Shown piece by piece: positions 1,429 through 53,552 of a DNA stretch of 64,000 bases. How positions within the stretch are numbered: the stretch's first letter is position 1; each line of letters opens with the position of its first letter. The stretch spans positions 1,288,505 through 1,352,504 of the forward strand of contig KN832560.1 of the NCBI GenBank assembly GCA_000827205.1, written 5' to 3'. The notes beneath the pieces are model-generated. The model did no database searches, was not told the DNA's origin, and was given only the letters and a program-made list of their open reading frames with translations. Source of the stretch: Plicaturopsis crispa FD-325 SS-3 (Eukaryota; Basidiomycota; Agaricomycetes; Amylocorticiales; Amylocorticiaceae). The position numbers were made by a program, and so were the translations under genes.

Positions 1429-1859
1429 ATGAACAGTGCCTCGTCCAGCCCTCCTCAGCCAAATCACCGACGAGCCACAGCAGGTCGATCTATCCTCCGT
1501 GTCAAGTCTCCGGACTGTCTGCACTCCGCCCAAGATGACGCCAAACATCAAATGGACCCCATGTCAGACGTTACTCAGCGGTTTCAGAATCTCGGACGGC
1601 CGCGAATGTCTCTAGAAGATTACTACGGCCATTCGGTTTCAGGTTCCCAATCCGTCCAGCCTTCGCAGGAAACAGGTCGTGCTGGAGGTAAGTGCGATGC
1701 GCCTTTTCTGTCGTCGCCGTTCTGATCCACACTACAGTACGGTTTGGTCCCGATCCGGTGACGAGTGATGAGCGGACGTCTCCCCCCAGCGTTCTATTCG
1801 AGGAGGAGGTAGCGGAGTTTGTCTGTGGGCCCTTCTGCATCAGGAAAATCACTTCGGCT

Positions 1860-4190
1860 ATATAGACCATGTCAAAATAAGGCCATCTATAATAGCCACT
1901 TTGTGTAACTTTGTAGCTATAAGAGCTATAATAGCTGTTATATCTAACAGAGGCAAAATATAAAATATTTGAGCTTGATCTTGCTGCTATAATAGCTCTT
2001 ATAGATGCTTCATACACTACCAAAAACAAAAACTCGAAGCTAGTTCATTTGAGCGGGGAAGTAAGTGAGCAGAAGTGGAACTGAATGCCGTATAGAAATT
2101 TCTATGGGCATGTCTATGTGTCGGGAAAAATCAAGGCGTCAAATAAGGAGAAGCGAAATCGGGCAATATGAAAACGCGTAAGGGCTTGGGCATTGTCGAG
2201 AACGCGCAAGCGTGGGCGTTGTCGAAAATGCGCACGGACATCGGCGTCGTTGAGAATGAATGTGCACGGGCGTGGGTGCCGTCGAGAACGGTAAGGGCGC
2301 GGGCGTTGTCGGAAACGCGCACAGGTGTCGCGTCGTCGGAAACGCGCACGGGCGTCGGTGTCGTCGGAAACGCAAACGCGCACGAGCGTCGGTGTCGTCG
2401 GAAACGCGCACAGGCGTCGGTGTCGTCGAGAATGTGCGAGGGCGTGGGCGCCGTCGAGCACGGTAAAGGCGCGGGCGTTGTCGGAAACGCGCACAGGCGT
2501 TGCGTCGTCGGAAACGCGCACTGCAGGTGCTGGCGTTGTCGAAAATGCGCGCGGGCATTGGCGTCGTTGAGAATGTGCGCGGGCGTGGGCGCCGTCGAGA
2601 ATGGTAAGGGCGCGGGCGTTGTCGGAAACGCGCACAGGCGTCGCGTCGTTGGAAACGCGCACGGGCGTCGGTGTCGTCAACAATGTGTGCAGGCGTGCAC
2701 GTCGTCGAGAATGTGCGCGGGCACGGGCGTCGTCGAGGACGTGTTCGGGCGGGGGTGTCGTCGAGGAAGTGTTCGGGCGGGGGTGCCGTCGAGGACGTGC
2801 ACGGGCGCAGGCGTCGTCGAGGACGTGCGCGGGCGCAGGCGTCGTTGAGGACGGGCGCGGGCGCAGGCGTCTTGAGGACGGGCGCGGGCGGGGGCATCGT
2901 CAAGGACCTGCACGGGCGCAGGGGCCGTCGAGGGCCGGCGCGGGCGGGGGCGTTGTTGAGGACGGGCGCGGGCACCCATCCACGATGTACGCCGGGTGGG
3001 TGTGCTCATGCAGGTGTAGCGCGAGCTGTGTGCTGGGGTGCATTAATTAATTATGCTGGAAGATCTGGGAAAAACAAAGGTATTTACACTCACCTGTTCC
3101 ACAACCTCTTCGCAGACACCCGCTACTCTAAGTTCGTCCCTAGCTCTGCGGACGCGGACGGTTGTGGAAAACTGCAAAGAGGCAAGATAAGATGAAATAA
3201 TGGACTTGTGAAAATTCGACGAAAGTCGACGCGCGGGAAATTAGCGTGGGAATGATTGCAAGACTCTGCACATTGATGCCACGTCAATTTTTCATTCTGT
3301 TCTTTACTCTCAACGCTCATACTCATTGTCTTGGACAACAACAATTCACTACCTACTCACCCTCCTCAGTTTAGGACTGGGGTGATCCCAATTTATTGCA
3401 TTCAATGTGAGTACCAGTATCTTTCTTTGTTGTTGAAAACATGCTCACAAGCTACAGCTGTCGCACCGCGTATCGTGGAGTTCGCAATCGTTGCCGGCGC
3501 CCTTTTAGTATAAACACCCCTCCCAAATGCTAACGCTCACGCTAGCTTGTGCCCCACCACCGGCAATCTTGTGGGTAGCTGGGCAATGTGAGCTACGATG
3601 CGGGGGCGCTGCTACTTGTTCGGCGGTAAGTGTACTCCCCCCTCTCTACTCCCTCTCGCAATCCCTAATTTTCTCCCTTATCCCCTCAGGACGTAGCTCG
3701 AACCTATGTTACTAACATTATGTTGCATGCAGAAACCATTGTGCGTCTTTGCGGGAGTGGCCGTGCAGTGGGAAGCGGAAGGTGTGGTGAGTTGTAGAAC
3801 AAATTTGCAAGTGATGATGTGCTAACGACCCTGTGTTCGCTGTTTGTGAGGGTAAGAATCTTACTGGTCATGATTGCATTGTGTGGGCTACAATAGTAGA
3901 TTAGTACTTGTATTAAATTAGCACAAATAAATTGATTTTGAACCTACTTCTATATGTGCACTTAGAGCTGTTATAGCTATTATAGCAAGGGAAAATGCTG
4001 TAAAATCACTAGAATCTAGTGTAACTATACGAGCTATAATAGCACATCACCCAAAAGGTGCCATCTATCCGGTGCTATATAGTTGGCACCTACCTATGGT
4101 GTCTATGTGAACTATATGAGCTATATAGCAACTTAGAGCAATTTAGAGCAACTTATAGCAACTTTGGAACCAGTTTGATTTTCCTGATGT
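1860..4190. mobile_element. Insertion of about 2.3 kb with AT-rich ends, class unknown
   Basis: This block separates two parts of a DUF6699 gene that are contiguous in all other copies. Its outer 150-200 bp on each side (about 1860-2010 and 3960-4190) are AT-rich and full of the near-palindrome GCTATAATAGC and variants such as AGCTATAAGAGC and GCTATTATAGC. The centre holds a 28-bp GC-rich minisatellite (2168-2975). From 3000 to 3850 there is ordinary-looking sequence with several GT..AG-like pairs but no recognisable protein. I see no transposase and could not fix exact ends or a target-site duplication. A non-autonomous DNA element (MITE-like or Helitron-like) is the best guess from the mirrored AT-rich ends. 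The boundaries are approximate. Confidence 0.45.
2168..2975. repeat. GC-rich 28-bp minisatellite, about 29 units
   Basis: By eye the block divides into about 29 imperfect units of 27-28 bp (a few longer), with consensus roughly GTCGTCGAGAATGTGCGCGG followed by GCGTGGGC. A higher-order pattern is visible: the unit series beginning GCCGTCGAGAA(C/T)GGTAAGGG, then GTTGTCGGAAACGCGCACAG, recurs near 2278, 2450 and 2591. The last units (from about 2725) drift to GAGGACGTGCGCGGGCGC. Because 28 is not a multiple of three, every frame runs open for long stretches and gives Arg/Ala/Val-rich or Pro/Arg-rich translations on both strands. I treat those as artefacts. Confidence 0.9.
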
Positions 4191-5108
4191 GGCCTAAGCC
4201 GCCACTCGGAGACTCACAAGGCCATCGACTTGCGCCTAAAGAGGACCGCCAGCAGCCCGGTCTACGCCTACCTCGACCTAGGTTAGCGCGACTAGGAGAC
4301 CCGCTTGACAATATGAAGGAAATTGTCCTCAGCCCTTGGTTAGTGGGCAATCACTGTATGTGGCCTCATCTTTACTACTGAGAATTACACCTGAGACTCA
4401 TGGGAGGCATCTATTTCAGACGGTCCTGCTTTACATCCCCTGCTACTTCCACACGTGCAGGCATTGCCCGAGATCAACCCAATCCTAAGGTCTTTGCAGC
4501 CGAATGACGATCCTAGTCGACACCACATCAAATGGGATATCTTGTTTACATCATCTCACGCTGGCTGCTCCCACGACGTGTCTGTCCATGAATGGATACA
4601 GTATCTCTTTTCGCCCGCTACTTTCCCTCGTCTCCGGGAAATCACTCTCGTATCGAGGTCTCTACCATGGACAATCCATGTCAGCGCCAAGAATGTCAGG
4701 GCAGGTGTTACGTGCGGCGATGTTCTCCACCAGATTTACGCCGCTCTGCACAAGTTCGCAGTGCATGAGGACAAACAGAAAATTTCACCGGCGGATTACG
4801 AAGGGGTTGTGTCAGCGGCTCAAGCCAATCGCAGGAGAAAGAACGACAGTGGGGAGTTCTTGATACCCTATGAACGCGCCGCCATGCGTCGAGTTGACTG
4901 GCTTGGACGGGCAACAATCTTCGCGGGTCTAGATCGGGACGAGGTGCATGTTGCAGACAGGTTCGGCGCCGCCATGCCAGCCGTGTTCATCTTACAGTTC
5001 CAGGAAACTGCGATTGCTGTGACTACCCGCAACGATGGTACCCCCTCCTCTACATTGTATATGGTTTCGTCCCGGCCTCATCATCTCATAGGGCGTGTGG
5101 GCACATGA

Positions 5109-5443: not shown

Positions 5444-8400
5444 ATGGACTCAGCTGTTGTGTCTGACATTCAGCAGCATGGTGTTTCTCACATGCTTCCT
5501 AGACCCAGAAACACGAGTATTCACACTGAGGACAGAGTGACAGGGAATACTCCTAGGATAACACACGGCGGCTTAGATCCTGAGATGCCAGTCAGCTCTG
5601 CCTCTCTATCTCCGCTAAACCTCTTGCACCGATTGACACATTCTGCCCGCCGAGGAACAGTGCCCCTACCCCCTTCCCATAATGACAATGGACAGTCCCT
5701 CTTTGTAGGAAATCCAACATCACATCTTGATGGGGGACATCTAAGCATACATGCCCCTTTCAAAGAACAGTTTGGCCATTCACCTGGTAAAGATTCTGGT
5801 CATTTCAATCCAGGTGAGTCACATAGTTGTTTTATTTTCATCCTCTTATACTCAATGCCTTGTTTTACAAGACCTAGATTCTGTCAAAGATATTCCAACA
5901 AGTAGCCTCCCAACTGGTCTTGGAACTGATGCTCAGATATGGGATACCTATCTTGAGGAGGCCACAAAGCATGACAAAGATGATATAATAAGCTGGAATC
6001 AGATTTTGGATGTAATATTGATCTTTGTGAGTCCCCTTTGTATTTGGCACGGTCCAGAAGCTTAACCCCTTGCAGGCTGCATTGTTCTCTGCTATTCTCA
6101 CTGCATTCATCATTGAGTTTTATCAAGGACTCCAGCCAGATCCACAGCAGACTGCTGCAGCTCTTCTACTAAACATCTCCCAGTCATTACAGGTGCTGAT
6201 CCATAATGCATCCGGCTCTGTTGATGCACCCACTGCTACTATGTTTTCTGCTGAGGAGTTTTCAGTACCTGCAGGTGTACTTGGAGTCAATATCCTCTGG
6301 TTTTCAAGCTTGACTTGCAGCCTTGGTTCTGCTATGGCTGCCATAGTTGTCAAACAGTGGCTTCAGTTTTACAATGCCAGTTTGGGCAGTGGGACACCAT
6401 ATGATTATGGTCATCAGCGCTAATACCGTTACAATGCTCTCATAGCATGGCATGTGCCTGGCATTATCTCTACTTTGCCATTGCTTATGCATCTATCTGT
6501 GATACTATTTTGTGTTGGTTTGGTACTGCAGCTATGGCAGATCAATAAGCCAGTAGCTTGCATAGTATTGGCTCTAATTACATTGTTTCTTGTGAGCTAT
6601 TTGGTTACTTTGCTTTTGCCTTTGGTATCATCTGCATGCCCATACAAGAGTTCAGCTCTTGTATTGTTGCAGCAGAGTTGGCATTACTTGAAGGAGAAAA
6701 TCTCAGAACTATGCCATCAACTTGGTATATTGTTGAGGGGTGTATTGCTCAAATGTCACATTACTATTGCTGGTGCCAATGTGCATGCTAGGAAAAGAAC
6801 CAAAAGAGTATATATATATGGTCAAACAGAGACAAAGAACATTCAAGACCATATATTTGATCTTGATGTTGATAGCATCCTTTGGTTATTGAAGTTTTCA
6901 AGAAAGCAGGAAGCAGTAGATCTAGCTCTAAAGTCAGTTACACATCTTTCCTACACCGAACATATGACACAGCAACTACTGGGTAGTAATGTACCTGAGG
7001 CACTTCTCCAAAGAGCTTTTGTCCCCTTGCCTTCTGAAGATAGTTATTGGTGGAAAAATCTGCATGTAATAAATTCCGGTCAAGATATTTTTACAAGATT
7101 ATCTGAGTCAGCACCATATATGAATGCACTTGTTTCCTTTTGGAGGCATCCTGTTTATCTCAAGGCAACTTGTCCTGTGCTAATATCTGAGCAGCATACA
7201 GTGACACCTCCCTTCTTGCTCTTTGGTGATTGGATTTTCCTTTGGACATCATTAAGAGAATCAAAGATCAGTGGAATACAAGGCATTCAAAATGACGGGT
7301 GGGATATAAATGCTTTTGCCTGTCTCATTTGTGCTGAGATGCATTATCACCATCTACAGTTTGGAGATGATTCATTTGTCATTAACTCAGGAATAGATAA
7401 AAAGCAGTGCAATATTTTGCAGGAGGTCCACATGTTACTTTCTGCTGTATCTAAGGATTTGTGGACATCAGCTAGTGCGGAAACAACAATTCTCCTAGTG
7501 AAAACACTGCAGTATGCTCTCAGAGTCCAAGATAATGCCAATATGATGGTTCACAGAAAGGAAACATTTCTTTCTATCCTGGAACTTTTGGAAAATCACG
7601 GAAAATTACCAGAGACAATTCTATGCGAGTTGGTTATCTGCTTCAAACTGTTTTTATCAAAGACAAAGGGAGAGCGGACACAACTTTTAATTACACCTGA
7701 TTATCCAGACAAGCGAAGTGATTGTTTATCTTTGCTTAGTAATATTCTTTCTGAGATAATTGTAAATCATTTGGTGGCAACTGCTCAAGCTCAAGACTTT
7801 GAGGTTGAAAGTTCAATAGTTGAAAAAATGTTAGCATGTCTATATAAGGTTGTACTTCAACAAAATGTACCACCTTTGAGTCTACATGCTGTTTTTATAA
7901 ATGTACCCCAGCAATATGTTCACTCATTTATACAAGGTCTAGTAATACAGAGATTTGGGAAATGGACCACAATACACTGTGTTACATGGCTTGTTGTCAG
8001 TTGACCTTTTGTGCAAATTTATGCACAGGAACAGCATTTCAATGTCATGCAAACAGGACATCATTATTATCTTGACAAGGTTACTTGAATGCAAATGGCC
8101 TTCTGGAAACTTGCACATTGTTGCCACAAATATCCTCGAATTTTTGGCTAGCAGTTTATCAGACAATCTGGAAAATCTTGAACATCTACACAAGCCATTA
8201 GAAAGAAACTGTGATCCTTCCCACCTTCAAAACTCTAGGTTGATGGTCCAAATAATGTGTAAAAGTGTTAGTGCTGGGCTCAGAGCTTGTTTGCGCACTG
8301 AGGACGACAAGAGATTGTTTTTGGAGCCCTTCCTCAAATTTGATGTTGTGGGGAAAGTGGTAAAGGCTATAGATTTGGATCCTCATCTGAATCACACTAT

Positions 8401-8683
8401 ATACGATGACTGGGTGGTGTTGGCCGATGAGTGGTCTCTAGGCATTGCAGAAAGCAATAAAGTACCAGGAAACACAGAACATTCCGTGTGCACTAAACTA
8501 AGAGATGAACTTATGCTATTGGAGCCAAAGGTACAACATGCCAGAGAAAATGTCATATTTTTTCCACCCATTGACTCAGACCAAGCAAACATACAAGAGC
8601 AATTTAACTATTCTGACAATCATGAAAGTTCTCAGGTTCATGAAGAGAATATCACCATTATTGAATGCATTGAACTTGACTGA
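5444..8683 (+). pseudogene. DUF6535 membrane protein gene, copy A (damaged)
   Basis: The exon structure is 5444-5813, 5872-6026 and 6076-8683; the first two introns are clean GT-AG introns whose phases match copy B. The product has a disordered Ser/Pro-rich N terminus, then the DUF6535 core: IWDTYLEEATKHDKDDIISW, a first membrane helix through LFSAILTAFIIEFY, LQPDPQQT, and three more hydrophobic helices (LWFSSLTCSLG, about 6475-6540 and about 6550-6630). A long C-terminal part without a recognised domain follows. An in-frame TAA at 6421-6423 interrupts the core right after YDYGHQR, where copy B reads on (YAHRRQYRYN). A one-base shift near 7985 separates the last 700 bp. The remaining frame is long and conserved, so the damage looks recent or is a sequencing error. 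The gene is clearly AT-richer than the kinase gene next to it. Function of the family is unknown. Confidence 0.75.
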
Positions 8684-9336: not shown

Positions 9337-11277
9337 CTAGTGAATCTCTTCGCACGCGATGCTCGCTATACCCGCCCGATCGACTATATGACCATTGCCG
9401 TCCACCTCACCCTCCTCTTCCTCTTGCTGATCTGCAATTTCCCCGTGTGCGGAATCGCCGTCGACATCCTTCGCCATGACGGGGACGACCTTCTTGGACT
9501 CCTCCTGCACACCGCCCGTCCACTCTTCCGCGAGGACATCGCGAACGCGTGCTCGTCTGCTCGTGTCTCGTTGGAGAAGCCGGTCGACGACTCTACGCAG
9601 CCCGGCGCTGAGGCCCATATCGGTGCCGTACAATTCTGCGTCGGTGGACAACGGATTGCTCCAAGGTGAGTCTACATCCTGGGGCCACGTATATTCACCC
9701 TTCGCGATGCGCATCAGCCAGCGCCGCCGGCCACGGCCAGTGCCGGCGTCCTCCCGCTGCACGCCGTCGTGGTCGTGCACGTCCTCGCCGAACGGTAGCC
9801 GCCGCGTCGCCATCGCATATAGCACGACGCCGCAGGCCCACGCATCGGTTTCGCGGCCGTCGTACGGCTGCCCGGGTATCACCAACTCCGGCGCAGCATA
9901 CGACTCACTCCCACACCGCGTCGTAAGCTGCGGTGCAGCCGGGTCGATGAACCGCGCAAGCCCGAAGTCGGTCAGCTTGATCAACGGGTACGGCGGCGGT
10001 GGGACGGGGTCGGAAGGTGCCGTCGTGAGCAAGATGTCTGTCGCTCACCGTCAGATAGGGGTAAGAAGATAGCAGACAAAGGGAGGGGACGCACTCTCGA
10101 GCTTGATGTCGCGGTGGACGAGGCCGACGCCGTGCATCCAGGCGACGGCCTTGCACAGCTCGCTCCACATGCGGCGAACCGTATGCTCGCCGAGGTTGGC
10201 ATGCGCAGCATCGGCGTTGACGAGGTCGAAGAGCTCGCCGCCGGGCAGATGCTCTAGAACGAGGACATGGTGTGTAGGCGATGTGAACGCAGCGAGGTGA
10301 GCGACGATCATTGGATGTGAGATATGCTGCGGACAAAAAAATCAGCACAGGGGGTAAGGGCACCTGGAGATCAGGGAGGGACTCACCCGCAGCACCTCGA
10401 CCTCGCGCACGAAGCTGACGCGGGTGCGGTTATCTGATCGCGAGGTCATCTTCACCGCTACTAACCGACCGTTGCCGCTTTCCGGGCGGACGACGACGCT
10501 CTCGCAGGGGCCGTCGCCGTCACGCTCGTCCAGGTACACGCTCCTGGCGCTCCCGACGCTCGCATTGCGCTCGAGGCCGGGATTCCTCTCCTTGTCCCGC
10601 GCCTTGATGACGGGCCGCGTCCCGTCGAGCGGCGTGACGGTCTTGCGGCGCATGCGTCTCGGGCGGGAGGGCAGCGCGTCGGCGGCCGCGAGCCAGACGG
10701 CGGAGAAGGTGCCTTGGCCAAGCACGCGGATGAGCTTCAAGGTGAGTGGTGGATCCGGATCGGCGATGACGGTGCCTGGTCCCAGGACGAACGCAGGCTT
10801 CACATCAGGTGGACGCGGCGTAATCTCGGACTCGCTTGGGGGGACCGGAGAGCGTCGATCGATGGGGGATATGGGCGAGGGTGTGCGGTCGAGATCGGGG
10901 GCGACTTCGCCGTGGCGAATAGATGTGTGTCGAGAGGGGAAGAGGCGTGAAAGGAGATGGGGTGGTGAGCGGGATCGAGAGGCCGGACGAGAGGGGTTGT
11001 ATATACTTGGCGGCGGGGTGGGGCGGGCGTCGATGGGCGAGGGTATAGCGAAGAAATCGGTGTTCAGCGAGGGCATCTTTCGCGGAGGCGGGCTTGTCTC
11101 GTATGAGGACGAGAAGAATGCGTCCGTCTTCGAAGACGTAGGCGGGGAAGTCGGCGGGGATTCATCGAAAAAGGTGGATGCGAGCGACGAACTGCTGAGA
11201 TTGCTCAGCTGTGAGCGTGCCGACGACGAGGAGGCGCTCGAAGAAGACGAAGACGTGGGTGAGAGCGCAGACATCAT
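9337..11277 (-). CDS. Serine/threonine protein kinase, intact copy
   Basis: Three exons on the minus strand, 10387-11277, 10095-10326 and 9337-10037, join in frame to 607 residues. Residues 1 to about 150 are Ser/Pro-rich and disordered (SSSSSSASSSS, SPPTSPPTSS). The catalytic domain follows: glycine loop GQGTFSAVW, VAVKM lysine, HRDIKLEN catalytic loop (reconstituted across the second intron), DFG in KLTDFGLARF, and YAAPELV. An insert rich in Arg and Asp lies between the loop and the VAVK strand. The C-terminal tail is acidic. The layout is that of CAMK-type kinases such as the yeast YPL150W/Kin4 neighbourhood, but I cannot place it in a subfamily. It acts as a protein kinase, probably cytosolic; substrates are unknown. 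I chose the ATG at 11277 (MMSALSP); an in-frame ATG 24 bases further upstream also exists. A decayed duplicate lies at 24.77-26.24 kb. Confidence 0.88.
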
Positions 11278-13612: not shown

Positions 13613-16600
13613 CTAACTAACTCTGATATCATTACTACCAGCTACAGATAGGTCCACATTCTCTGTTTGCTCAAACTGCACAATGTGGATAGGTCGCTGC
13701 ATTGGAGATGTATCTGTGAAAGACAATGCTAGCCCTGGTGCATGTGTCACAACTGTTTGCTCTGGTAACAAGTCTGGCATATACCCTGCTGTATCTTTCT
13801 GGTGACCACTATGCTGGTCCTTAAAAGATTCAAGGCCATCACGCAGATACTCAGCATGAGCTAATTCACTTTCTCCAGGTTTTGATGTCATAGTACTACT
13901 TGTAGTATACCAATAGTCAGATAATGCAATCCAATTCTGGATGCATTGAGTCAAATCAGAATTGAGCTCAAGTGCCTTTATGATCTTTTTAGGTATCTCT
14001 GACTGTATGAATGATGTCAAGAACATTTGCCTGTCATCTTCTGATCGGAAAGATGCCCTCAATCCAGATGCAAGGCCATTACATATGAGGGCAATGAAAT
14101 GTTTTTTCTCTTGTTTTTCATGGGTCATATGTTGTACAGAGGACATATTTTTCTGCAGGTGCCACAATTTTTGCACAAGCTCATCTAGCATATTGCCAAA
14201 GAATGGAACAACTTTTTCAGCAACTAGATGCAGATTTCCAGGCCATTTAGATGAAAGTAATTCTGTCAATATATTGATAATAACTTGTTGGCTATCTGAA
14301 GAGAGACTACCCTTATGTATCCATTGACACAACAAGTCTGACATCCACACCACGGAATACATTGTAGTCCATTTGGATTTAGATAATCTGATTGTAGCCA
14401 TTATCCTTATGAAGGCATCAGCATATGAACCAGGTAGTGCTAAAAAGACATGGTCACAACTGGTGGATGGTATATTCTGCTGAAGCAGACTTTCATAGAG
14501 ATATTTGACCATATTCAAGATACTAAGATCAATCAGTGTTGAGCCTTCTTCCACTTCAGCTAATTGAGATGTGATTATGTTGCCAAGTGTTTGGCTAAGA
14601 AAAGTAAACCATTCTTTGCGTGTGAGTGGAAGGCTTGACATATGGATAAAGTCTCTGCGTGCAGCATTTGTCTGAAGTGAAAATAACTTCAAGAAAATAG
14701 CAATCTCCTGAAGGATTTCATCAAAGACCATTTTTCTTGAATTCAAAAGCTTGAGAATGATAAGAAATGACTCCTTTCCTTCTATTACAGTGTCTAAGCT
14801 TTTGCTATCTGTAAGGATGAATCCAAGAGTCTTGATCATAAGACACAATGTCTCATCGTTAACACACACATTTTTATCAGATGGTTTTGAAAGAATGAAG
14901 TGAATTTCTTGCAATAAATTGCATTGTTCTTGTTCAATGCATGTCACTTCATATGAATCATATCCAAACTGCAAATGTCGATAATGCAATTCAGTACAGA
15001 TGAGAGTGACAAAAGCATCAATGTTCCACTCATTTTGGGACATCTCATAATGGTTGCCATTTGATTTCTTCAGAGCTTGCCATAGAGATACCCACTGACC
15101 AAAGAGTAGATCAGAAGGACCCTTGTTATGTTGTACAGATATTGCAGGTAAACCACCAGGCCCAAAATATTGAGGATGCCTCCATATAGTGATGAGAGAT
15201 TTCATGTAAGTGTTTGACTCTGAGAGCCTTTGAAAGATATCATCCGTAGGATGTAAAACATTTAGATTCTTCCAGAAGTAACTATCTTCACTGGGAAGGG
15301 GTGTGAAAGCTCTTTGGATCAGAATATCTGGTATTTCGTGATCAAGCATTTGGGCTATCATTTTACTTGTATAGCTTAGCTTTGCAATAGACTTCAATGC
15401 TAAATCGACAACTTCCTGCTTCTGTGATGATCTTAAAAGCCACATTATGCCATCAATGTCAAGGGCGGTTTTGTGCCTTTCAATATTTTCCCATTCTGTT
15501 TGGCTACTTCCACTATGGTGATATGCATGTTTTTTGGCCTTTTGATCTACATGCTTTTTTGCTAGAGACATCTTATCACATTTTAATGTGTTGTCAAAAA
15601 CCATGATAGCTTGACTAAGGAACATCCACAGCTTTCTACGAGAGTATTGCCAACTTTGCTGTAGTAACAACAAAGCAGAGCTTTTATACGGACATGCAGA
15701 GAATATCAGAGGCAAAAGCAAAGTGACCACATAGCATGTTAGAAATAAAATGATCAAAGTCAACACAGCAGAAGCCACAGTGTAGTTAATTTGCCAAAGC
15801 TGTAGCACCAAGCCAATAAGGAAGAGTACAACAGATAGATGCATGAGCAGTGGCAAAGAAGAGACAATGCCAGGCACATGCCAAACTATAAGAGCATTAT
15901 AACGATACTGTCGGCGGTGTGCATAATCATATGGTGTGCCACTGCTAAGGCTGAAGGTATAGAACTGGAGCCACTGCTTGACAACCATGGCAGCCATGGC
16001 AGCACCAAGACTGCAGGCTAAGCTTGAGAACCAAAGAACATTGACTCCAACCACCCCTGCTGGCAATGTTCAGCAGTGGAAACAGAGGCACTTTGAGAAG
16101 AGAGCCTAGGCTCATTCTCAGCTAATGCCTGCAATATTTGAGTAATGTTGAGGAGAAGTTCTGCTGTAGTCTGCTGTGGATCTGGCTGGAGATTCTTGTA
16201 GAACTCAATGATGAATGCAGTGAGAATAGCAGAGAAAAGTGCAGCCTACTTCCTAGTGAGCCTTGCAAACTAAAATCTGAAGTCAGAGAAACTAACGCAC
16301 AAAGATCAAGATCACATCCATATTTTGGTTCCACCCCGTTATGTTGTCTCTATCATGTTGTGTGGCCTCCTCGAGATAGTTCTTCCAGATCTGAGCATCA
16401 ATCCCTAACCCGGGCTGAAGATCATTGGGAAGAAGGTTCTTAACAGATTCAGTGTCTTGTAAAACAGGCCGAATCAGTGCCATCGGATTGCCAAGCTAAA
16501 CTCACTTACCTGGGTCAAATGTACGAGATTCCTTCCCTGGTGAACGACCATACTGGTTCACTGGCGGCAGAGGAGCATGAATACTGATGTGGCCACTGCC

Positions 16601-16930
16601 ATTCGGTCGTCTGTCTGTAGTGTGGCCTCCAGATGGTGTCGTAGCACTGCTATACTTGCCGTCGTCGTGTGATGGGGGCAGTGACATAGCCTCGCCTCGG
16701 ACAGTGCTTGTTAAAGCGCTCGGCGAACGAAGTGGCGACAATGGTGAGCTCTGTCTCTCTCCAAATTGAGGCATCATACGTGCCTCCAATCCTCCTCCCT
16801 CCTCAGGTTCAGCATTTGTCGTATTCCCTGCGTGGTTGTAGACAGCAGGAGCTGTGTTGGCCATAATGTCCGGAGTGCGGAGCTCTTGTTGATCAATAGT
16901 GTTCGCGTGAGCATCGTCTGCCCCCGCCAT
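13613..16930 (-). pseudogene. DUF6535 membrane protein gene, copy B (one frameshift)
   Basis: Minus-strand exons are 16510-16930, 16301-16455 and 13613-16245; intron positions and phases equal those of copy A. The N terminus (MAGADDAHANT..) is disordered and ends FDPDTESVKN. The core reads IWKNYLEEATQHDRDNITGW, then LFSAILTAFIIEFYKNLQPD. More membrane helices follow (VLWFSSLACSLG and the hydrophobic stretch up to CPYKSS), then about 650 residues of helical-looking sequence without a recognised domain. Between ..VSTAEH and PAGVVGVN, near 16066, copy B lacks about 7 bases compared with copy A, which breaks the frame once; downstream about 810 codons remain open. Either a recent lesion or a sequence error would explain this. 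It faces copy A, with the kinase gene between them. Family function unknown. Confidence 0.75.
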
Positions 16931-17421
16931 GTCTTGAAGGGTCTTTTGAGGAGAGCAAAGGCAGAGGGGAATGGGCGGAACACCTGGTGAAAGGGATGAA
17001 TGATGAGCGTAGCTGAGTAGTACGTCGCTATGCCATAGGCCTTGTATTTTCCGACGTCTTCTTTGTGGGCGCGTGCACATTCATCGCGACGAGCTGAGTA
17101 ACAAGGACGTTTGTAATTGTGACCGTTGTGACTTGTTCATAATTCGTAGACGTCTCGACTCTCGACTGTCTACCGAGCTCATCGTTCACGCGTTCAGCTT
17201 GAGAATACTCGGTCGAACTTACTTAGCATTCATTGCGAGCAAAAACTCTACTGTCGATTGTGTATTGCGACTAGCAGGCAAGCAACGAGAACAACAACGG
17301 CGAACAATGATGCAAGGATAGCCAGTGAATTTGTACCCGACGGCAGTTGTATGGTCATCATCTATCTTTGAAACGAGATGATAAGTATTGCTGGAAGGAA
17401 CTGCCAAAGCTGACGCACCAT
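16931..17421. other. Intergenic; left edge of a segmental duplication
   Basis: No gene seen. From about 17100 the sequence matches 30440 onwards (for example CATCGTTCACGCGTTCAGCT and CTACTGTCGA-TGTGTATTGC), marking the left boundary of the duplicated DUF6699 + cerato-platanin segment. Confidence 0.6.
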
Positions 17422-18741
17422 TCATGACCCTCCGAATGCCAGCTCTTGAGAGTGTAGGATAAACGCCGCAGGTAGGTCGGTGCCAAATCTATGTGCGACA
17501 TATGCATCATCACGGTCTAGCCCTCTAAAGAAAGACTTGCTGGCAAGCCAATCAATTCTCCTCATGGCGGCTGAAAGTCGCATCAAAGATGCTGCCGGCT
17601 CTCCGTGCGCGTCTTTCCTAGTGCGATGGTGCACGTACGCTGCCTTGGAAGCGTCCAGTTCCGACGATGCGAGGTACCGAATCTCATTCTGGCGGACGAC
17701 GAGCAATAGATATGAGTATATTGCATCGATAATGTCGCCACACGTGACGCCAACGTTAGCGTCCTCGGGGTTAGCGAAGATGAGCCATGGGAAAGACTTG
17801 GATAGAATGTAAATTTTGCGCAGTCGCGGAGACGTAGCTGGTGAATGCAGGTACTCGGACCAAGTCGTTTCAGAGACAGCGTGCGAGCAACGAGCGTAAG
17901 TTGAAGGAAACACCATTTCCCAGTTGATACGATGTTGGTTAGGTGATTCGTTCAACGAAGGCAGTCGGAGCAGAGGGTTGAGCTCCAGACATGTGTCTAC
18001 GTGAGGTAGAATTGTTGGTTGCAGAACGAGTCCATCTGAAATAAGAAGTATCGGCACCAGGTAAGCTGTATGAAGGCAGGAACGAAAACGTTTGCACGAA
18101 CAAGCATTACCACTTAACCAGCGACTGGCAACAGCATCCTTGAACACGTCGCGAGAGTAATCCGGCTGATCGCGCCGAGGTCGAGTGAGAAGTGAAATGG
18201 ATTGCCGATGAGGCCGACGGACGGCACGCGAGGGGGTCCGCTCTGAAGAGAATGTTACTGCTTTCTTGTGTGCGACGCTCTCGGGGCCGGCCTCAAGAGG
18301 CATCGAAGCAGAAGCAATCAAGCCTCCCTTAGTAAGGGGTGGAGGATGAGGGCCTGTTGTAGTCAAACCGGAAACGGGTACGATTTCTTCCTCACGTATG
18401 GACGGCCTTTTGTTCTGCTCATCTCCGTCGTTGCGACGAACCGTGGCGTCGCGTTGGTTATTCAAGAGTCTGGCACGTCTCATCAACTCGTCGGAGAGTC
18501 CCGTGGGCTGGGCATATTCGGAGCTGTCCGCACATGCTCGAGGTCCATAATAATCCTCCCGTGACATGCGCGGGCGCCCGAGTTTTTCAAAGCGAGCGTT
18601 GATATCTGCGAGGGGATCCTGTCTCTGTTCCGGAGCATCTCGTGGACGTAGAGGAGAATTTGTGCGTGCCAGGCGGAGGATCGGAGGGCCTGGCTCTGCT
18701 TTTCGGTGATTCGGTTGGAAACCAACGGCAGCGCTGCTCAT
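17422..18741 (-). CDS. DUF6699 family protein, copy 2
   Basis: Exons 18111-18741 and 17422-18035 give 414 residues if the 75-bp intron (GTAATG..TTTCAG) is removed. The intron is a multiple of three and has no stop, so an unspliced form adding 25 residues is also possible. N terminus: FQPNHRKAEPGPPILRLART, then FEKLGRPRMSREDYYGP. The middle is variable and ends with RPRRDQPDYSRDVFKDAVAS-RWLSGN. The C-terminal DUF6699 domain carries LELNPLL, HRINWEMVFPS, SPATSPRLRKIYILSKSFPW, GVTCGDIIDAIYSYL, AAMRRIDWLASKSFFRGLDRDDAY and LHSQE. The ATG at 18741 was chosen because all copies start shortly before the QPNHR block. Function unknown. It is the closest relative of copy 5, as part of the same segmental duplication. 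Confidence 0.82.
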   Translation of the reverse strand: MSSAAVGFQPNHRKAEPGPPILRLARTNSPLRPRDAPEQRQDPLADINARFEKLGRPRMSREDYYGPRACADSSEYAQPTGLSDELMRRARLLNNQRDATVRRNDGDEQNKRPSIREEEIVPVSGLTTTGPHPPPLTKGGLIASASMPLEAGPESVAHKKAVTFSSERTPSRAVRRPHRQSISLLTRPRRDQPDYSRDVFKDAVASRWLSGNACSCKRFRSCLHTAYLVPILLISDGLVLQPTILPHVDTCLELNPLLRLPSLNESPNQHRINWEMVFPSTYARCSHAVSETTWSEYLHSPATSPRLRKIYILSKSFPWLIFANPEDANVGVTCGDIIDAIYSYLLLVVRQNEIRYLASSELDASKAAYVHHRTRKDAHGEPAASLMRLSAAMRRIDWLASKSFFRGLDRDDAYVAHRFGTDLPAAFILHSQELAFGGS

Positions 18742-28377: not shown

Positions 28378-29679
28378 TTATGCTGCCTTGATTGCGGTGT
28401 CTTGTGAGTGCAAGACAAAGGCCCCAGGCATAGCGACACTAAATCTCTCTGCGATATATGCGTCGTCACGACTAAGTCCGCCGAAGAAAGTTTTGTGCGA
28501 GAGCCAATCTAGTCTCCTCATGGCAGCCGAATGTCTCATCAATGAGACGGTAGGCTCTCCATGCTCATCTCGCCTTGTCCGATTGTGGTGATACGCTGCA
28601 TCAAAAGCGTTCAAGTCGGATGGAGGCAGCACTCGAATTTCCTCACGGACCACCCTCACATATAGATACGAGTAGATTTCATCAAGAACGTCGCCACACG
28701 TTATGCCCACGTTGAAATCCTCGGGATTGATGTGGATGATCCAGGGGAATGATCGTGATACGATGAATATTTTGCGTAGTCGAGGAAAGGTGGCGGGAGA
28801 GTGAAGGTGTTCGGACCAAGTCTTCTCAGACACAGTGTGTGAGCAGCGCGCGTAGGATGAAGGAAACAGCATTTCCCAGTTGACGCGATGTGAGAATGTT
28901 TTATCTAATAGAGGTGGGCAGAGCAGGGGGTTCAGTTCTGGACATGCGTCCACATGCGGGAGCAGTAATGTTGGAAGGACTGGTCCATCTGCCAGACGAA
29001 GTCTCAATCGATCATGCCCCGTGCAGAAACAGAAACAGAACATACAATTACTCCCGGTGAGCCAATGATTGACAACGACGTCTCTAAATAGATCGCGAGA
29101 GTGGTCTGGTTGATCCTGCCGTGGGCGTCTCAGTGGTGTGACAGATCGGCGACGCGGCCTACGGGAGGCGGGCGGTGGTTTCTTCTCTGAAGGAAAGGTT
29201 GCTGCCTTCCTATACACAACGTATTCGGGGAGGACCCCAGACGCCTTCGAGTTTGAAGCAACCAGTTCTCTGTTTATAAGTGAATTAGGATAAGGTCCCA
29301 CCAAACCTGGACCAAAAACGGGTACGAATTGTTGCTGGTAGAGGAACGGCAGCGTGTCCTGCGCAATTGCATCGATGCGACGACCTGCTACATCGCGTTG
29401 GCTCGTCAACAGACCGTTGTGTCGTACTAGGTCGGGGATGCCACCTGGCTGTGAGGGCCTAGCGAGATGGTCGTGGTGCTCCGAGCGAGCCCCGGGCCCA
29501 TAACAGTCCTCCAGTGACATCTGTGGGCGTCCAAGCTTTTCAAAGCGAGCATTGACCTCTACGAGGGCGTCCTCTTTCTCATTCGAAGCATCTCGCGGAC
29601 TCAATGGAGAGTTCGTGCGTACCGAGCGAAGGATTGTGGGGTCTGGCTCTGCTCGGGGGCTGGTGGGAGCGGTGCTCAT
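28378..29679 (-). CDS. DUF6699 family protein, copy 4
   Basis: Exons 29052-29679 and 28378-28988 give 412 residues; the 63-bp intron is a multiple of three without a stop, so intron retention would stay in frame. N terminus: SPRAEPDPTILRSVRTNSPL, then FEKLGRPQMSLEDCYGPG (the motif's first Tyr is Cys here). A linker with QQQFVPVFGPGL and a basic block PRRRSVTPLRRPRQDQPDHS precede DLFRDVVVNHWLTG. DUF6699 domain: PELNPLL, HRVNWEMLFPSSYARCS, SPATFPRLRKIFIVSRSFPW, GITCGDVLDEIYSYL, AAMRRLDWLSHKTFFGGLSR, LHSQD. Most similar to copy 6 at 50.4 kb (same QQFVPVFGPGL linker), although that copy lies on the other strand 21 kb away. Confidence 0.83.
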   Translation of the reverse strand: MSTAPTSPRAEPDPTILRSVRTNSPLSPRDASNEKEDALVEVNARFEKLGRPQMSLEDCYGPGARSEHHDHLARPSQPGGIPDLVRHNGLLTSQRDVAGRRIDAIAQDTLPFLYQQQFVPVFGPGLVGPYPNSLINRELVASNSKASGVLPEYVVYRKAATFPSEKKPPPASRRPRRRSVTPLRRPRQDQPDHSRDLFRDVVVNHWLTGSNCMFCFCFCTGHDRLRLRLADGPVLPTLLLPHVDACPELNPLLCPPLLDKTFSHRVNWEMLFPSSYARCSHTVSEKTWSEHLHSPATFPRLRKIFIVSRSFPWIIHINPEDFNVGITCGDVLDEIYSYLYVRVVREEIRVLPPSDLNAFDAAYHHNRTRRDEHGEPTVSLMRHSAAMRRLDWLSHKTFFGGLSRDDAYIAERFSVAMPGAFVLHSQDTAIKAA

Positions 29680-30754: not shown

Positions 30755-32061
30755 TCAAGACCCCTCGAACGGCAGCTCTTGAGAGTGCAAGATAAACGTC
30801 GCAGGTAGGTCGGTGCCAAATCTATGTGCGACGTACGCATTATCACGGCTTAGCCCTCCAAAAAAGGTCTTACGAGCAAGCCAATCGACTCTCCTCATAG
30901 TAGCTGAGCGGTGCAATAAAGAGGCAGCCGGCTCTCCGTGCGCGTCTTTCCTCGAGCGATTGCGCACGTATGCTGCATGGAATGCCTCCAGATCGGTCGA
31001 GGGGAGGTCCCGAATATCTTTTTCGCGCACAGAGAGATATAAATACGTGTAGATTGCATCGAGGACATCGCCACAGGTCACGCCGATGTCGACGTTTCCG
31101 GGGCTGACATTGATGAACCACGGAAAAGATTTCGATATGACGAAGATTTTGCGCAAGCGCGGAGATGTAGCAGGAGCACGAAGGTATTCGGACCAAGTCT
31201 TGTCAGACACTTTGTGCGAGCACCGGGCGTATGACGGGCGGAACACTATCTCCCATTGAACGCAGTGTTGCTGCTGAGACGACGAAGGCGGGATAAGCAG
31301 AGGGTTTAACTCTAGGCAAGCCTCAATGTGGGGTAGCATCATGGGCTGCAAAACTGGGCCACCTGGGAAAGGTAGTGTCAGTTGGATCGTGCCGCTAGCA
31401 GAATTGAAAATATAAACGAACAACCATTGCTAGCTAGCCAGAGACCGGCAACAGCATCCGTGAACACGTCGCGAGAGAAATCCGGCTGATTGCGCTGAGG
31501 TCGTCTGAGAGGTGGAACGGATTGTTGATGGGGTCGAGGGACAGAACGCGAGAGGGTCCGCTCCGAAGAGAATGCTACTGCCTTCTTATGTGCGACGTTC
31601 TCGGGGCGGACAGCAGGGGGCATCGGAGCAAAAGCAATAGGGCCTCCCTTGGTAAGAGATGGAGGAGGAGGGCCTGCTGAAGTCAGGCCGGACAAGGGCA
31701 CGATTTCTTCTTGATATACGGACGGCCTTTTGTTTCGTTCGTCCGCGTCGCTGCGACGAGCCGCCACGTCGCGTTGGCTATTCAAAAGTCTGGCATGTCT
31801 CACGGAGTCGTCGGAGAGTCCCGCGGGCTGGGCATAGTCGGAGCTGTCCGTGCATACCCCAGGCCCATAATAATCCTCCCGTGACATGCGCGGGCGTCCG
31901 AGTTTTTCGAAGCGAGCATTGAGATCTGCAAGGGGGTCATCTCCCTTTTCCGGAGCATCTCGTGGACGTAGAGGAGAATTCGTGCGTGCCAGGCGGAGGA
32001 TCGAAGGGCCTGGCTCTGCTTTTCTATGATTCGGCTGGAGACTGACGGCTGCGCTGCTCAT
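30755..32061 (-). CDS. DUF6699 family protein, copy 5
   Basis: Exons 31425-32061 and 30755-31362 (62-bp intron) give 414 residues, the same length as copy 2. N terminus: LQPNHRKAEPGPSILRLART, then FEKLGRPRMSREDYYGPGV. Linker: KRPSVYQEEIVPLSGL and KKAVAFSSERTLSR, ending PQRNQPDFSRDVFTDAVAGLWLASN. DUF6699 domain: LELNPLL, HCVQWEIVFRPSYARCS, APATSPRLRKIFVISKSFPW, GVTCGDVLDAIYTYL, ATMRRVDWLARKTFFGGLSRDNAY, LHSQE. Both domains align over their length with copy 2, and the flanks do too, so the pair arose by segmental duplication. Two adjacent ATGs (32061, 32064) could serve as start. Confidence 0.83.
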
Positions 32062-48479: not shown

Positions 48480-48543
48480 TTACAGAGACTAGGGTATATA
48501 CACGTCCATATATCGTGAAGAAGTAGCACATGTGTACAGTAAT

Positions 48544-49347: not shown

Positions 49348-50411
49348 GGCTACCTTCAAGTCAAAGAAAACGATGATGAAGGTCGGGAACAAGAGGTAAA
49401 TGTCGACGATAATTGTCGACTCTAGGCAAGCTGGTCTATCGGACGCGTCGCCTCGGCGTGCTGTCTAGGGCCAATCAGAAGGCGGGGGATTCACTCGGCC
49501 CGCCCCGAAGCTACTTTACTCTTCTGCTGCATTCAGGCTTCATACAATTCACGCCTACGAGGACTGCACTACATATCTATGATTTTGCTCTACAACCGTT
49601 GGACTAGGACATAGCGACTCCTGGACCAAAAGCGACGAAATGGCTCTGCTGCGCGACACAACAGAGCCTGAGGAACGTCTAACCATGCACCTACGGAAGA
49701 GGTGTATTTTCCACAATCGAGAGGTTTCGGCCACCGGTGTCCTCGTCTGACGGCCGTCCGCAGAGTAGCACAAAGAGACCAGGAACTGCCGCTGAGAGTC
49801 GATATTGGATGTACGCGGTGTCCCTGTCAAGTCCCTACTTGCACTCGTATATCGACATCATGGTCGACGCTAGGACTTTCCTCGACCCCTTCTCTAGGAT
49901 TAGGTGAGTATCCGCTGTCCAGGGTACATGGTGGAAGACTAATTATGTTGGCTGAAGTCGCTGATATAGGTGTATTTGTTACGGACTTGCTTTGAATTAG
50001 CGGCCATCGTTTTGCTCAGTGCTATTGTTGTGACTGCTTTCGAATTCGCACCCATTTATCTCTGTATCATCTTCTGAAGCTCTCAGGCAAGTCTTTTGTG
50101 TTTCCGATCGTAGTCGACGACATCAAATACTGAGCAACGACATTGAGTAGTCGTACAAGTCTTCTCATTCAACACCATCTGTAATCCCCCGCATCGCTCG
50201 AACCTCCAAAGTATCCTGCTACTGTCGTTGTATATCTGGGCCACGTAGCTGCATCCACCCTGCTATCTCGGATATCTTGTTGCTGCACAGGTGCGTTCCG
50301 ACACATTAACCAAGCTTCGTCGACACTGAGGTACCTTTCACAGCTATCGTCGACTGTGTTTCATTCGAGAAACCAGCCTTTATTGTCTACAGTAGACTTA
50401 CAGCCTCAGCG
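49348..50411 (+). promoter_or_regulatory. Leader region of DUF6699 copy 6
   Basis: From about 49835 to 50110 this matches the leaders of copies 2, 4 and 5: ATCGACATCATGGTCGACGC, CTAGGATTAGGTGAGTATCC, GATATAGGTGTATTTGTTAC, and the CTCTCAGGCAAGTCTTTTGT site at 50081-50100. Here the leader is on the plus strand, so it moved together with the gene when that copy was inverted. 49348-49830 shows nothing recognisable. Confidence 0.5.
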
Positions 50412-51729
50412 ATGAGCAGCGCTCCCGCCGACCCCCCTCAGCCAAACCATCGACGAGGAGAGCCAGGCCCCTCGATCCTTCGCTCGACACGCACGAACTC
50501 TCTACTGGATCCAGGAGATGCTTCGAATGAGGGAGAAGACACCGTCGCAGAGGTTAATGCTCGCTTTGAAAAGCTTGGACGCCCGCGAAAGTCACTAGAG
50601 GATTATTACGGACCCGGGGCACGCTCGGAGCATTCCGACGATCTCCCTAGGCCCTCACGGCTAGAAGGCAGCTCCGGCAAGCTCGTACAAGACAACACGT
50701 TGACGAGCCAACGCGACATGGCGGCTCATCGAAGCGATGCAACTTTGCAGGGTGCATTGCCGTTCCTCTATCAGCAACAATTCGTACCCGTTTTTGGTCC
50801 CGGTTTGAGCCCGTATTCTCTTCCGTTCATAAACGGCGAAATGATTACTTCGGCTTCGATACCGCCTGGGGCTCTCCCCGAATACATCGTTTACAGGAAG
50901 GCTGTAACGCTCCCTCAAGAACAGAAACCGTCGCCTCCCGTCCGCAGACCTTGTCGCCGATCCATTCCACCTTTAAAACGCCCACGGCAGGACCAACCGG
51001 ATCACTTTCTCGATGTATTCAGAGATGCCGTCATGGATCACTGGCTAACTGGGAGCAATCGTTCGTCCCCTTTCTTTTTCTACGCGTAGCGTGATTCATT
51101 GGATCCTACCTATGTCAGATGGACCAGTCCTTCAGCCATTATTGCTGCCTCATGTGGAAGCATGCCTGGAGCTGAACCCCCTGCTTAGCCCACCTTCACC
51201 GGATGAAACACCCCAACATCGCGTCAACTGGGAAATGTTATTTCCGTCATCATATGCGCGCTGCTCGCACACTGTGTCTGAGGAGACCTGGTCCGAACAC
51301 CTCTATTCCCCGGCTACCTTTCCGCGACTGCGCACAATCTTTATCATATCGCGATCTTTTCCCTGGATCATCGATGTCAACCCCGAAGATGTCAACATCG
51401 GCGTAACGTGTGGCGACGTCCTCGATGAAATCTACTCGTACCTGCATGTCAAGGTGGTCCGCGAAGAGATTCGGGCTCTTCCTTCATCAGATTTGAGCGC
51501 TTTCAATGCTGCGTATCAAAAAAATCGTGCGAGGCGAGATGAGCATGGAGAACCTGCCATCTCCTTGCTGAGACGTTCGGCTGCCATGAGGAGACTAGAT
51601 TGGCTTTCCCGCAAAACTTTTTTCGGCGGACTGGATCGCGATGACGCGTATATCTCAGAGAGATTCGGTGTAGCCTTCCCCGCGACGTTTGTCTTGCATC
51701 CACGAGAGACCGCCGTCAAGGCAGCTTGA
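50412..51729 (+). CDS. DUF6699 family protein, copy 6
   Basis: Exons 50412-51060 and 51119-51729 (58-bp intron) give 419 residues. N terminus: PPQPNHRRGEPGPSILRSTR, then FEKLGRPRKSLEDYYGPGAR. Linker with LPFLYQQQFVPVFGPGL and a basic PCRRSIPPLKRPRQDQPDHF block ending DVFRDAVMDHWLTG. DUF6699 domain: LELNPLL, HRVNWEMLFPSSYARCS, SPATFPRLRTIFIISRSFPW, GVTCGDVLDEIYSYL, AAMRRLDWLSRKTFFGGLDR, and LHPRE at the end. Closest to copy 4. The intron donor is either GTTCGT after GGGAGCAATC, which I used, or a GC donor four bases upstream of it. Function unknown; looks intact. Confidence 0.83.
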
Positions 51730-52227
51730 GCAAGACGTCACCAACATTCACTCTTAGCATTTTTCGATACCCACGCGCAATCCTTGACTAGGAAACACTG
51801 TCGCCCGTTTCTTTGTCCTTGGCTTAGTACTTGATATCGCTAGCTCGTGCTTGTTCCTCGGAATCCGTAGTGTCCTTGGTGCTATCTGCATCAACTTGAG
51901 AACACGTACATACCTTGTACTGGTGATTGTAGATGAAATACAACGGCCCCAGGCTTTGTAGTACGAAGCACGTCGACATACTAGGAGACCCTTGTACAAT
52001 TTCGACGTCGACGGTCGGATACAAGTGTCGAATACAAGGGATGGTGCCCCGCGCGCCAACGGGCTGCAGCGGCGCAGCTCAAGTTGAAGTACTGGAGACT
52101 CACTTTGTCTTCAGCCTTCAGCTTCAATCAATCATCCGTGAATCTGTGGCAGCATAATACACAATCCTACGCCACTACTTATGAGGGAAAGTTCATATCT
52201 GTGTCGTATTGAGGGAAGACACGTATA
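51730..52227. other. Spacer with a duplicated promoter-like segment
   Basis: Between the converging 3' ends of DUF6699 copies 6 and 7. The stretch of about 51930-52125 is similar to about 53862-54095, just upstream of the carboxypeptidase gene (shared: AGCACGTCGACATAC, AGGAGACCCTTGTACAATTT, CGACGTCGACGGTCG). It has no role as a promoter here, so it looks like a copy left by a rearrangement. Confidence 0.6.
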
Positions 52228-53552
52228 CTATACTATGATATCGATTGGCACGGCATCCGCATCCTGCGACAGCAGAACAAAGGTTGCAGGCATAGCACTA
52301 TCGAATCGCTCCTTCACGTATGCGTCGTCAGGCTCGAGCCCGCCAAAAATAGTGTTACGAGCAAACCAATCGACTCTCCGCATCTCATCGGAGTATTCGA
52401 GCAAAGTTGACGCAGGTTCTCCATGCTCGTCTCTCTGGCTGCGGTTGGTTCTATAGGCTGCCTTGAAAGTGTCCACCTCCGAGGGGGACAACTCTGCCAG
52501 CTCTTCGTCCAGCACTGCGTCGTATAAGTACGAGAAGATCTCGTCGAGGACGTCCCCGCACGTCACACCGGCTTTGGTGTCTTCGGCATTCACATGGATC
52601 GTCCATGGAAAAGATTTCGAGGTGAGGAACATCTTGCGTAGTCGGGGGAAGGTAGCCGGCGAATGAAGAAGATCCGACCACGCCTCTTCAGACACATCCC
52701 GGGAACAGCGTGCATAGGAGGGCAGATATATCATGTTCCATTTGACACGATGCGACGGTGAAGTGTCGTCGACAGAGGGTGGGCAAAGGAGGGGGTTGAG
52801 CACCGGACGGGCATCAACGAGAGGGAGAGTCCAGGGAGTAAGAACCGGTGCATCTGAGACGACATGTTCAATAATCAGCGTGCATGCAGCAACAAGCTCG
52901 GTCACGTACAGCCACTGCCAACAAGCCAATGAGTTACTAAGATATCCTTGAACGCGTCCTGAGAGTAATCTGACTGCCGTCTCCGAGGTCGTTGAAGTGG
53001 CTTGCCTAAGTATCTTGCAGTTTTAGCGATGGCGACTGGAAGGTATCTGTTTGTAGAGACGGACACCGCACCAGATGCGAAATACTGAGGACGGGGTTTA
53101 GACTGCGGTGATCCAGAGAACATGGATGTTCCTTTCATCGGGGGAGGAGGGGGGCGACCTGCAATAGCGGAACGTGCAACAGGCCCTGGTGGTTGCTGGT
53201 GTACAAACGGCCGATGTTCGTCCCTGACTGGACCGTGGCGACGGCCTACGACGACATCCCGCTCAGCTGCTAGGACATTGTCGTTTGGAAGGGACTGGCC
53301 AGTCGGGTATGATAGCTCTGGCAAAGGATCCGACTTCCCTGCCTTGGGCCCATAGTAATCTTCGCGCGACGTCCGTGGACGCCCGAGTGTTTTCGAGCGA
53401 GCAGTGTTGCTCAATGCAGGATCACCGTTGCGTTCCGGATCATCTCGTGCGCGCCGAGAAAGCTCGGATGTCGAGGTTGGCACCCGGAGGATCGATCGAC
53501 CTGGTATTGCCGTGCGATGGTTCGGCTGGGGCGGATGGGCAGCGCTGCTCAT
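52228..53552 (-). CDS. DUF6699 family protein, copy 7
   Basis: Exons 52910-53552 and 52228-52853 (56-bp intron, GTACGT donor) give 422 residues. N terminus: HPPQPNHRTAIPGRSILRVP, then SKTLGRPRTSREDYYGPKA. The linker is proline-rich (SAIAGRPPPPPMKG) and ends LQRPRRRQSDYSQDAFKDIL, then HWLVG. DUF6699 domain: PVLNPLL, HRVKWNMIYLPSYARCS, SPATFPRLRKMFLTSKSFPW, GVTCGDVLDEIFSYL, EMRRVDWFARNTIFGGLEPD, LLSQD. It is the most divergent of the contiguous copies and shares the GRSILR variant with copy 1. No shared leader is evident upstream. Direct repeats of about 200 bp lie on both sides of it. Confidence 0.82.

What the first reader, a model, noticed from the sequence alone, without database searches (positions are those of the whole stretch)
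1429..53552. Seven-member DUF6699 gene array in 52 kb
Seven copies (1.4-5.1, 17.4, 26.3, 28.4, 30.8, 50.4 and 52.2 kb) share one design: a short conserved N-terminal motif, a variable linker, a basic linker motif ending in WL-G, one intron at the same place, and the DUF6699 domain. Copies lie on both strands, some are near-identical pairs and others diverged, and one is split by an insertion. This is a birth-and-death pattern typical of recognition or conflict genes, but no function is known for the family.
Basis: partly seen in the sequence, partly recalled or inferred. Interest (0 to 1): 0.75.

Follow-up and report, generated by a model that had tools for sequence, protein, structure and literature searches.

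The report
Mushroom gene array with membrane-protein partner
A wood-rotting mushroom carries a cluster of duplicated genes of unknown function that keep being copied and broken, and four copies in the region sit directly in front of a second gene, for a membrane-type protein, that appears to have been copied along with them; what either gene does is not known.

Summary
The observation largely holds. Seven DUF6699 genes lie in the window, about 0.05 being expected by chance, with one phase-1 intron at a shared place. The genome is Plicaturopsis crispa FD-325 SS-3. Corrections: no pair is near-identical (best 70% protein identity); the array reaches beyond the window (11 of 26 DUF6699 loci lie in 146 kb); copy 1 is split by a 2.35-kb inverted-repeat DNA element. 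Selection is purifying in every region (omega about 0.54 mid-linker, 0.21 domain); strains could not be compared.

The two families diverge in step (r = 0.98, six comparisons among four pairs), so the pair was duplicated as a unit; only one pair looks whole. The array's N-terminal motif resembles one in core DUF6699 proteins of other mushrooms. The domain folds confidently but matches no solved structure well; the few weak matches are ubiquitin-like. Best reading: birth-and-death expansion of an adaptor-like gene seeded by a two-gene unit. A recognition role is possible, not shown.

The parts
1429..5108 (+). DUF6699 copy 1, interrupted: exon-1 5' part from 1429, TIR element inside, domain exon 4419-5108; upstream member of pair 1
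1838..4189 (.). Inserted DNA element with 14-nt terminal inverted repeats and an internal GC-rich ~28-nt tandem repeat array
   Evidence: (first part at 15 other genome places)
5444..8683 (+). DUF6535 gene of pair 1, 335 nt downstream of copy 1; frame broken (a stop at 6421-6423, frame change near 7.95-8.0 kb)
13613..16930 (-). DUF6535 gene of pair 2, directly downstream of the 17.4-kb copy; frame change near 16.05 kb (lesion or assembly error)
17422..18741 (-). DUF6699 copy w17 (417 aa, one phase-1 intron of 66 nt), upstream member of pair 2; equals NCBI P0003
26253..27529 (-). DUF6699 copy w26 (406 aa in my model; NCBI P0004 384 aa)
28378..29679 (-). DUF6699 copy w28 (equals NCBI P0001, 414 aa; frame also open through the 57-nt intron); the stretch taken begins 5 codons further upstream, at 29694
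30755..32061 (-). DUF6699 copy w30 (equals NCBI P0002, 415 aa); its block duplicates that of w17
49766..49834 (-). Possible short remnant of the 3' end of a DUF6699 domain (23 residues, 61%, E 0.005; weak)
50412..51729 (+). DUF6699 copy w50 (419 aa); block 49836-51855 is an inverted duplicate of 28255-30271
52228..53552 (-). DUF6699 copy w52 (422 aa; equals NCBI P0005)

Best explanation
The locus is a lineage-specific birth-and-death expansion of DUF6699 genes in Plicaturopsis crispa that was seeded by a two-gene unit: a DUF6699 gene followed, on the same strand and 0.3-0.5 kb downstream, by a DUF6535 gene. SHOWN: four such pairs on this contig (two in the window), the two partners diverging in step; single DUF6699 genes multiplied further without the partner by tandem, inverted and segmental duplication; copies and partners decay. 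SHOWN BY PREDICTION ONLY: the DUF6699 protein modelled is a ~200-residue, low-confidence (presumably disordered) tail plus one folded domain. INFERRED: DUF6699 proteins are intracellular adaptors. The tail holds a short docking motif (S-x-(E)D-Y-x-G type, shared with core DUF6699 proteins of other mushrooms), the domain (possibly a ubiquitin-like beta-grasp fold with insertions) binds a partner, and in the paired copies that partner is the DUF6535 membrane-type protein, perhaps made from a shared read-through transcript. The variable linker is a loosely constrained spacer. Unpaired copies keep the domain under purifying selection and may vary the dose or the partner choice.
For: Array and design. 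Pairs: DUF6535 matches at C7:1246843+, 1294580+, 1304295-, 1382023- against DUF6699 at 1245018+, 1293031+, 1306013-, 1383617-; gaps from DUF6699 stop to the first likely DUF6535 ATG about 335, 491 (or 341 with an upstream ATG), 472 and 531 nt. Step-wise divergence: identities DUF6699/DUF6535 34/38, 33/36, 38/41, 43/47, 47/46, 53/53%, r = 0.98; the 1245-kb pair is the outlier in both trees. In the fork of five DUF6535 proteins that holds them (support 88/99) four are paired. Tail and folded domain: (domain pLDDT 90, pTM 0.89). Motif: 13 of 33 non-P. crispa proteins whose domain starts at residue 150 or later, and 6 of 7 P. crispa ones; 0.20 of 40 expected after shuffling. Purifying selection. 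Read-through transcripts involve 717 of 9,073 transcribed loci (7.9%) in P. crispa, with a mean inter-ORF distance of 364 nt (PMC4503453, section 9 read).
Confidence: 0.5

Rival explanations
1. A recognition/conflict cluster: DUF6699 and DUF6535 form a nonself-recognition or cell-death module (DUF6699 as adaptor or receptor, DUF6535 as membrane-linked transducer), and the array supplies variant specificities.
For: Lineage-specific expansion with decay. A relative of the paired DUF6535 proteins carries a C-terminal WD40 propeller region (P0108, 33% over 79% of the query); another, more distant DUF6535 protein also carries WD40 repeats (P0120). P0103 ends in a NADAR-like stretch (Pfam E 0.011, below the curated cut-off) and P0104 in a similar tail by eye, with no Pfam hit. 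Fungal NLRs and incompatibility systems use WD40 sensors and, in cases, adjacent gene pairs (search listings and abstracts).
Against: Purifying selection in all regions tested. No NACHT, NB-ARC, HET or HeLo-type domain in the Pfam rows shown for 29 window ORFs (of 123 listed) or for the DUF6699 and DUF6535 proteins scanned; for P0108 and P0120 only the best 25 rows were shown. The WD40 segment of P0108 gave no internal BLAST match, so it lacks the highly alike repeats seen in some fungal NLRs. No strain data.
Confidence: 0.2
2. Passive regional duplication: the neighbourhood is duplication-prone, and DUF6699, DUF6535, kinase and cerato-platanin genes were copied together without selection for copy number.
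For: Kinase block 9752-11232 / 24783-26237 at 92% and cerato-platanin block 20749-21793 / 33072-34110 at 90%, against 76-77% for the DUF6699 blocks. Several copies are broken.
Against: Six window copies remain open reading frames with domain omega near 0.2 at protein identities of 45-70%, so they have been kept under constraint for long.
Confidence: 0.25
3. Gene conversion, not independent retention, shapes the array: paralogues exchange exon 1 and domain pieces, so trees and dN/dS mix histories.
For: w17/w30 have synonymous difference 0.16-0.33 in windows lying in exon 1 against 0.32-0.69 in the domain, with a step at the exon boundary; exon 1 dS 0.28 against domain 0.87. w28/w50 also rises, more gradually, from 0.13 at the start.
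Against: A sharp step in one of three profiled pairs only; it does not explain the gene pairs.
Confidence: 0.05

Closest known systems
DUF6699 (Pfam PF20415) core proteins of Agaricomycetes (e.g. Pleurotus P0012, Hohenbuehelia P0016, Mycena P0020)
   Same: Same domain (about 30-44% identity), long proline-rich or presumably disordered N-terminus, S-x-D-Y-x-G type motif in many but not in Mycena
   Different: Many core proteins carry TPFIPP and a proline-rich tail; the array copies have their own exon 1, form a clade of P. crispa rows and are tandemly multiplied
DUF6535 (Pfam PF20153) membrane-type proteins
   Same: Downstream partner at four loci; same domain
   Different: Seven of eleven DUF6535 loci found in this genome are not next to a DUF6699 locus; some relatives elsewhere carry WD40 or NADAR-like tails
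het-S / NWD2 type adjacent gene pairs of ascomycetes (titles and abstracts in search listings)
   Same: Two unlike genes side by side, one of them acting on membranes
   Different: No NLR or HeLo domain in the proteins scanned here; amyloid motifs were not searched for; this fungus is a basidiomycete; function untested

Membership tests
DUF6699 (PF20415) | Pfam domain above the curated cut-off of 24.1 bits | tested here: met
   All seven window copies 81-94 bits; three of them also by hmmscan
DUF6535 (PF20153), partner genes | Pfam domain above the curated cut-off of 23.9 bits | tested here: met
   Two window genes and two more on C7
Ubiquitin-like (beta-grasp) fold | Clear structural match to a ubiquitin-like domain | tested here: inconclusive
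Fungal NLR / heterokaryon-incompatibility genes | NACHT or NB-ARC domain, or HET/HeLo effector domain | tested here: not met
   None in the Pfam rows shown for the DUF6699 and DUF6535 proteins and the 29 window ORFs scanned; other window ORFs not scanned
Fungal NLR / heterokaryon-incompatibility genes | Positive or balancing selection and strain polymorphism | tested here: inconclusive
   Only the between-paralogue part was tested: omega below 1 in every region. Polymorphism among strains could not be tested
Birth-and-death gene family | Lineage-specific duplicates together with pseudogenes or interrupted copies | tested here: met
Conserved two-gene unit | Adjacency kept in other species | not testable with these tools
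   No other fungal genome was available to search; contig lengths of relatives give no support

The most novel reading that the evidence does not exclude
DUF6699 and DUF6535 are the two halves of an undescribed intracellular recognition or cell-death module of mushroom-forming fungi: a beta-grasp adaptor with a disordered docking tail, encoded just ahead of its membrane-anchored partner, with spare adaptor copies evolving new partner specificities in an array.
Probability: 0.15. Interest if true: 0.75.

Novelty: new variant of a known kind. Interest (0 to 1): 0.42.

Why it matters
DUF6699 and DUF6535 are Pfam families of unknown function; the named relatives found here are, to my knowledge, all Agaricomycetes. 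No paper in the held library names DUF6699 or PF20415, and one names DUF6535 (search listing only). A repeated, co-diverging gene pair gives a concrete, testable hint of a partner for DUF6699, and the confident domain model plus a shared short motif say which parts to test. If the pair works together, two families of unknown function collapse into one question.

Tried and rejected
Near-identical recent pairs: rejected. Positive selection in linkers: looked for by pairwise NG86, sliding windows and one-ratio ML; not found. The fixed omega = 1 runs also fixed kappa at 2, so the likelihood gaps (17 for the mid-linker, 60 for exon 1, 201 for the domain) are not clean likelihood-ratio tests. The omega values quoted are the early estimates printed in the run logs.

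Partner search next to unpaired sisters: no DUF6535 in the fetched flanks of C6:559 and C2:3064, and no DUF6699 in the fetched flanks of the C16 DUF6535. No protein named for P. crispa appears among the 35 DUF6535 hits, so its copies may be unannotated; not followed up. The DUF6535 tree includes one short long-branch row (D9_421) that makes its rooting unreliable; a further DUF6535 piece on C11 was left out of that tree.

Literature: listings only; one paper read in part (PMC4503453, abstract and section 9). That NADAR belongs to NAD/ADP-ribose conflict systems is from one abstract in a listing and recall.

Full report
WHAT IS THERE. The window is contig C7:1288505-1352504 of a 33.2-Mb fungal genome. 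Protein matches on a contig of the same length, 1,834,389 bases, name it Plicaturopsis (Plicatura) crispa FD-325 SS-3, Amylocorticiales. Pfam DUF6699 gives 27 matches genome-wide, 26 loci after I merged two pieces of one C6 locus; seven are in the window and eleven lie in C7:1245018-1391532. These are lower bounds: P0008, a P. crispa protein, is not in the genome as held. With 26 randomly placed loci, 0.05 are expected per 64 kb, and seven or more have a probability near 1.5e-13.

THE SHARED DESIGN. Six window copies and the C7:1383 copy make uninterrupted two-exon models with a phase-1 intron right after the W-L stretch (56-66 nt in the six window copies) and GT...AG ends. Five of six NCBI proteins are identical to these models; P0004 (w26) has a different exon 1. 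The array's exon 1 is found at nine loci: seven in the window, C7:1384 and C6:1033. Full-length protein identity among the six intact window copies is 45-70%, so none are near-identical.

HOW THE ARRAY GREW. Blocks repeat in direct and inverted order: 17180-19382 with 30518-32696 at 77%, 28255-30271 with 51855-49836 inverted at 76%. Unrelated neighbours were copied too: a kinase block at 92% and a cerato-platanin block at 90%. Copy 1 is interrupted at 1838-4189 by an element with 14-nt terminal inverted repeats; its first ~110 nt (57 in one case) occur at 15 other genome places. Degenerate or partial matches lie at C7:1391 and C6:1036, and the C6:1033 match also contains stops. The w17/w30 pair shows a step in synonymous difference at the exon boundary, a sign of conversion.

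SELECTION. Pairwise NG86: exon 1 dN/dS 0.24-0.52 in 20 of 21 pairs (one not computable), domain 0.06-0.30 in 24 of 28 (four saturated). One-ratio ML: exon 1 about 0.46, N-terminal part 0.40, mid-linker 0.54, basic stretch 0.30, domain 0.21. Two of 57 sliding windows exceed 1, over three pairs. This is constraint, weaker in the linker.

THE PARTNER GENE. DUF6535 gives 18 matches, 11 loci. Four, all on C7, begin 0.3-0.5 kb downstream of a DUF6699 gene on the same strand: window 4.5/6.1 kb, window 17.5/15.8 kb, C7:1245/1246 and C7:1383/1382. Identities within the two families rise and fall together over the six comparisons (r = 0.98), and the 1245-kb pair is the outlier in both trees. The six comparisons are not independent, and duplication as a unit suffices to explain them; they show shared history, not shared function. 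Only the 1383-kb pair looks whole: both members of pair 1 are broken, the pair-2 DUF6535 has a frame change, and no exon 1 is recognisable for the 1245-kb DUF6699. In P. crispa, read-through transcripts over tandem genes were reported at 717 of 9,073 transcribed loci, with a mean gap of 364 nt (PMC4503453, section 9); whether these pairs are among them was not visible.

THE N-TERMINAL MOTIF. The array's 'S-x-E-D-Y-Y-G' resembles 'S-x-D-Y-x-G' in core DUF6699 proteins. The pattern occurs before the domain in 19 of the 40 proteins whose domain starts at residue 150 or later (6 of 7 from P. crispa, 13 of 33 others), against 0.20 expected after shuffling. The pattern was chosen after looking, the proteins are related, and all eight Mycena proteins with TPFIPP lack it, so the ratio overstates the case. 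In the P. crispa genome it was found within 1.6 kb upstream of the domain in 8 of 24 loci; copy 1 keeps it on the far side of the insertion (read), and w28 has a variant.

RELATIVES. The array copies, C7:1383 and P0008 form one clade (100/97), sister to C6:559, C7:1245 and C2:3064 (96/89); core proteins of other mushrooms lie outside, and P. crispa's own core-type copies are C4:989 and C7:1387 (38 rows, 23 from the genome and 15 of the proteins found by then). A metagenome protein, P0062, is 83% identical to P0008, so relatives of that copy exist in another organism or strain. All named DUF6699 hits are Agaricomycetes by my own knowledge. DUF6535 relatives include one close to the paired group with WD40 repeats (P0108), a more distant one with WD40 (P0120), and a NADAR-like tail in P0103 (E 0.011, sub-threshold) and, by eye, P0104.

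VERDICT. Real array, lineage-specific, kept under constraint while copies come and go; the striking addition is the co-diverging DUF6535 partner. I commit to an adaptor-and-membrane-partner reading at 0.5, with the recognition version at 0.2 and passive regional duplication at 0.25.

Noticed in passing
window 9337-11370 (-) and 24783-26237: A protein kinase gene and a 92%-identical partial duplicate block 15 kb away, next to DUF6699 copy w26
   Followed up: partly
window 20749-21975, 33072-34110, 35136-35571: Three cerato-platanin copies; the first matches Pfam only in part, two blocks are 90% identical and lie beside the duplicated DUF6699 blocks
   Followed up: partly
window 19965-20681 and the end of L034: Runs of N: assembly gaps or withheld stretches
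   Followed up: no
C9:424680-424801 (L030) near the short DUF6535 frame at C9:421036: The same inverted-repeat element family as in copy 1 lies about 3 kb downstream of a truncated DUF6535 frame on C9
   Followed up: no
L014:1520-2530 (C7:1243.5-1244.5 kb): GC-rich repeated stretch upstream of the C7:1245 DUF6699 domain, where exon 1 would be expected
   Followed up: partly
C6:1033 copy (L022:2245-3319; NCBI P0074): The DYYG motif is expanded into short tandem repeats in this copy
   Followed up: no
P0008 and P0074 (NCBI contig of 1,938,800 bases) against C6 (1,877,716 bases): P0074 is 100% in C6 but the NCBI contig is longer, and P0008 is missing from the genome as held: part of that contig seems absent here, with one more DUF6699 copy
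   Followed up: partly
window 2170-2973: GC-rich ~28-nt minisatellite inside the inserted element
   Followed up: no
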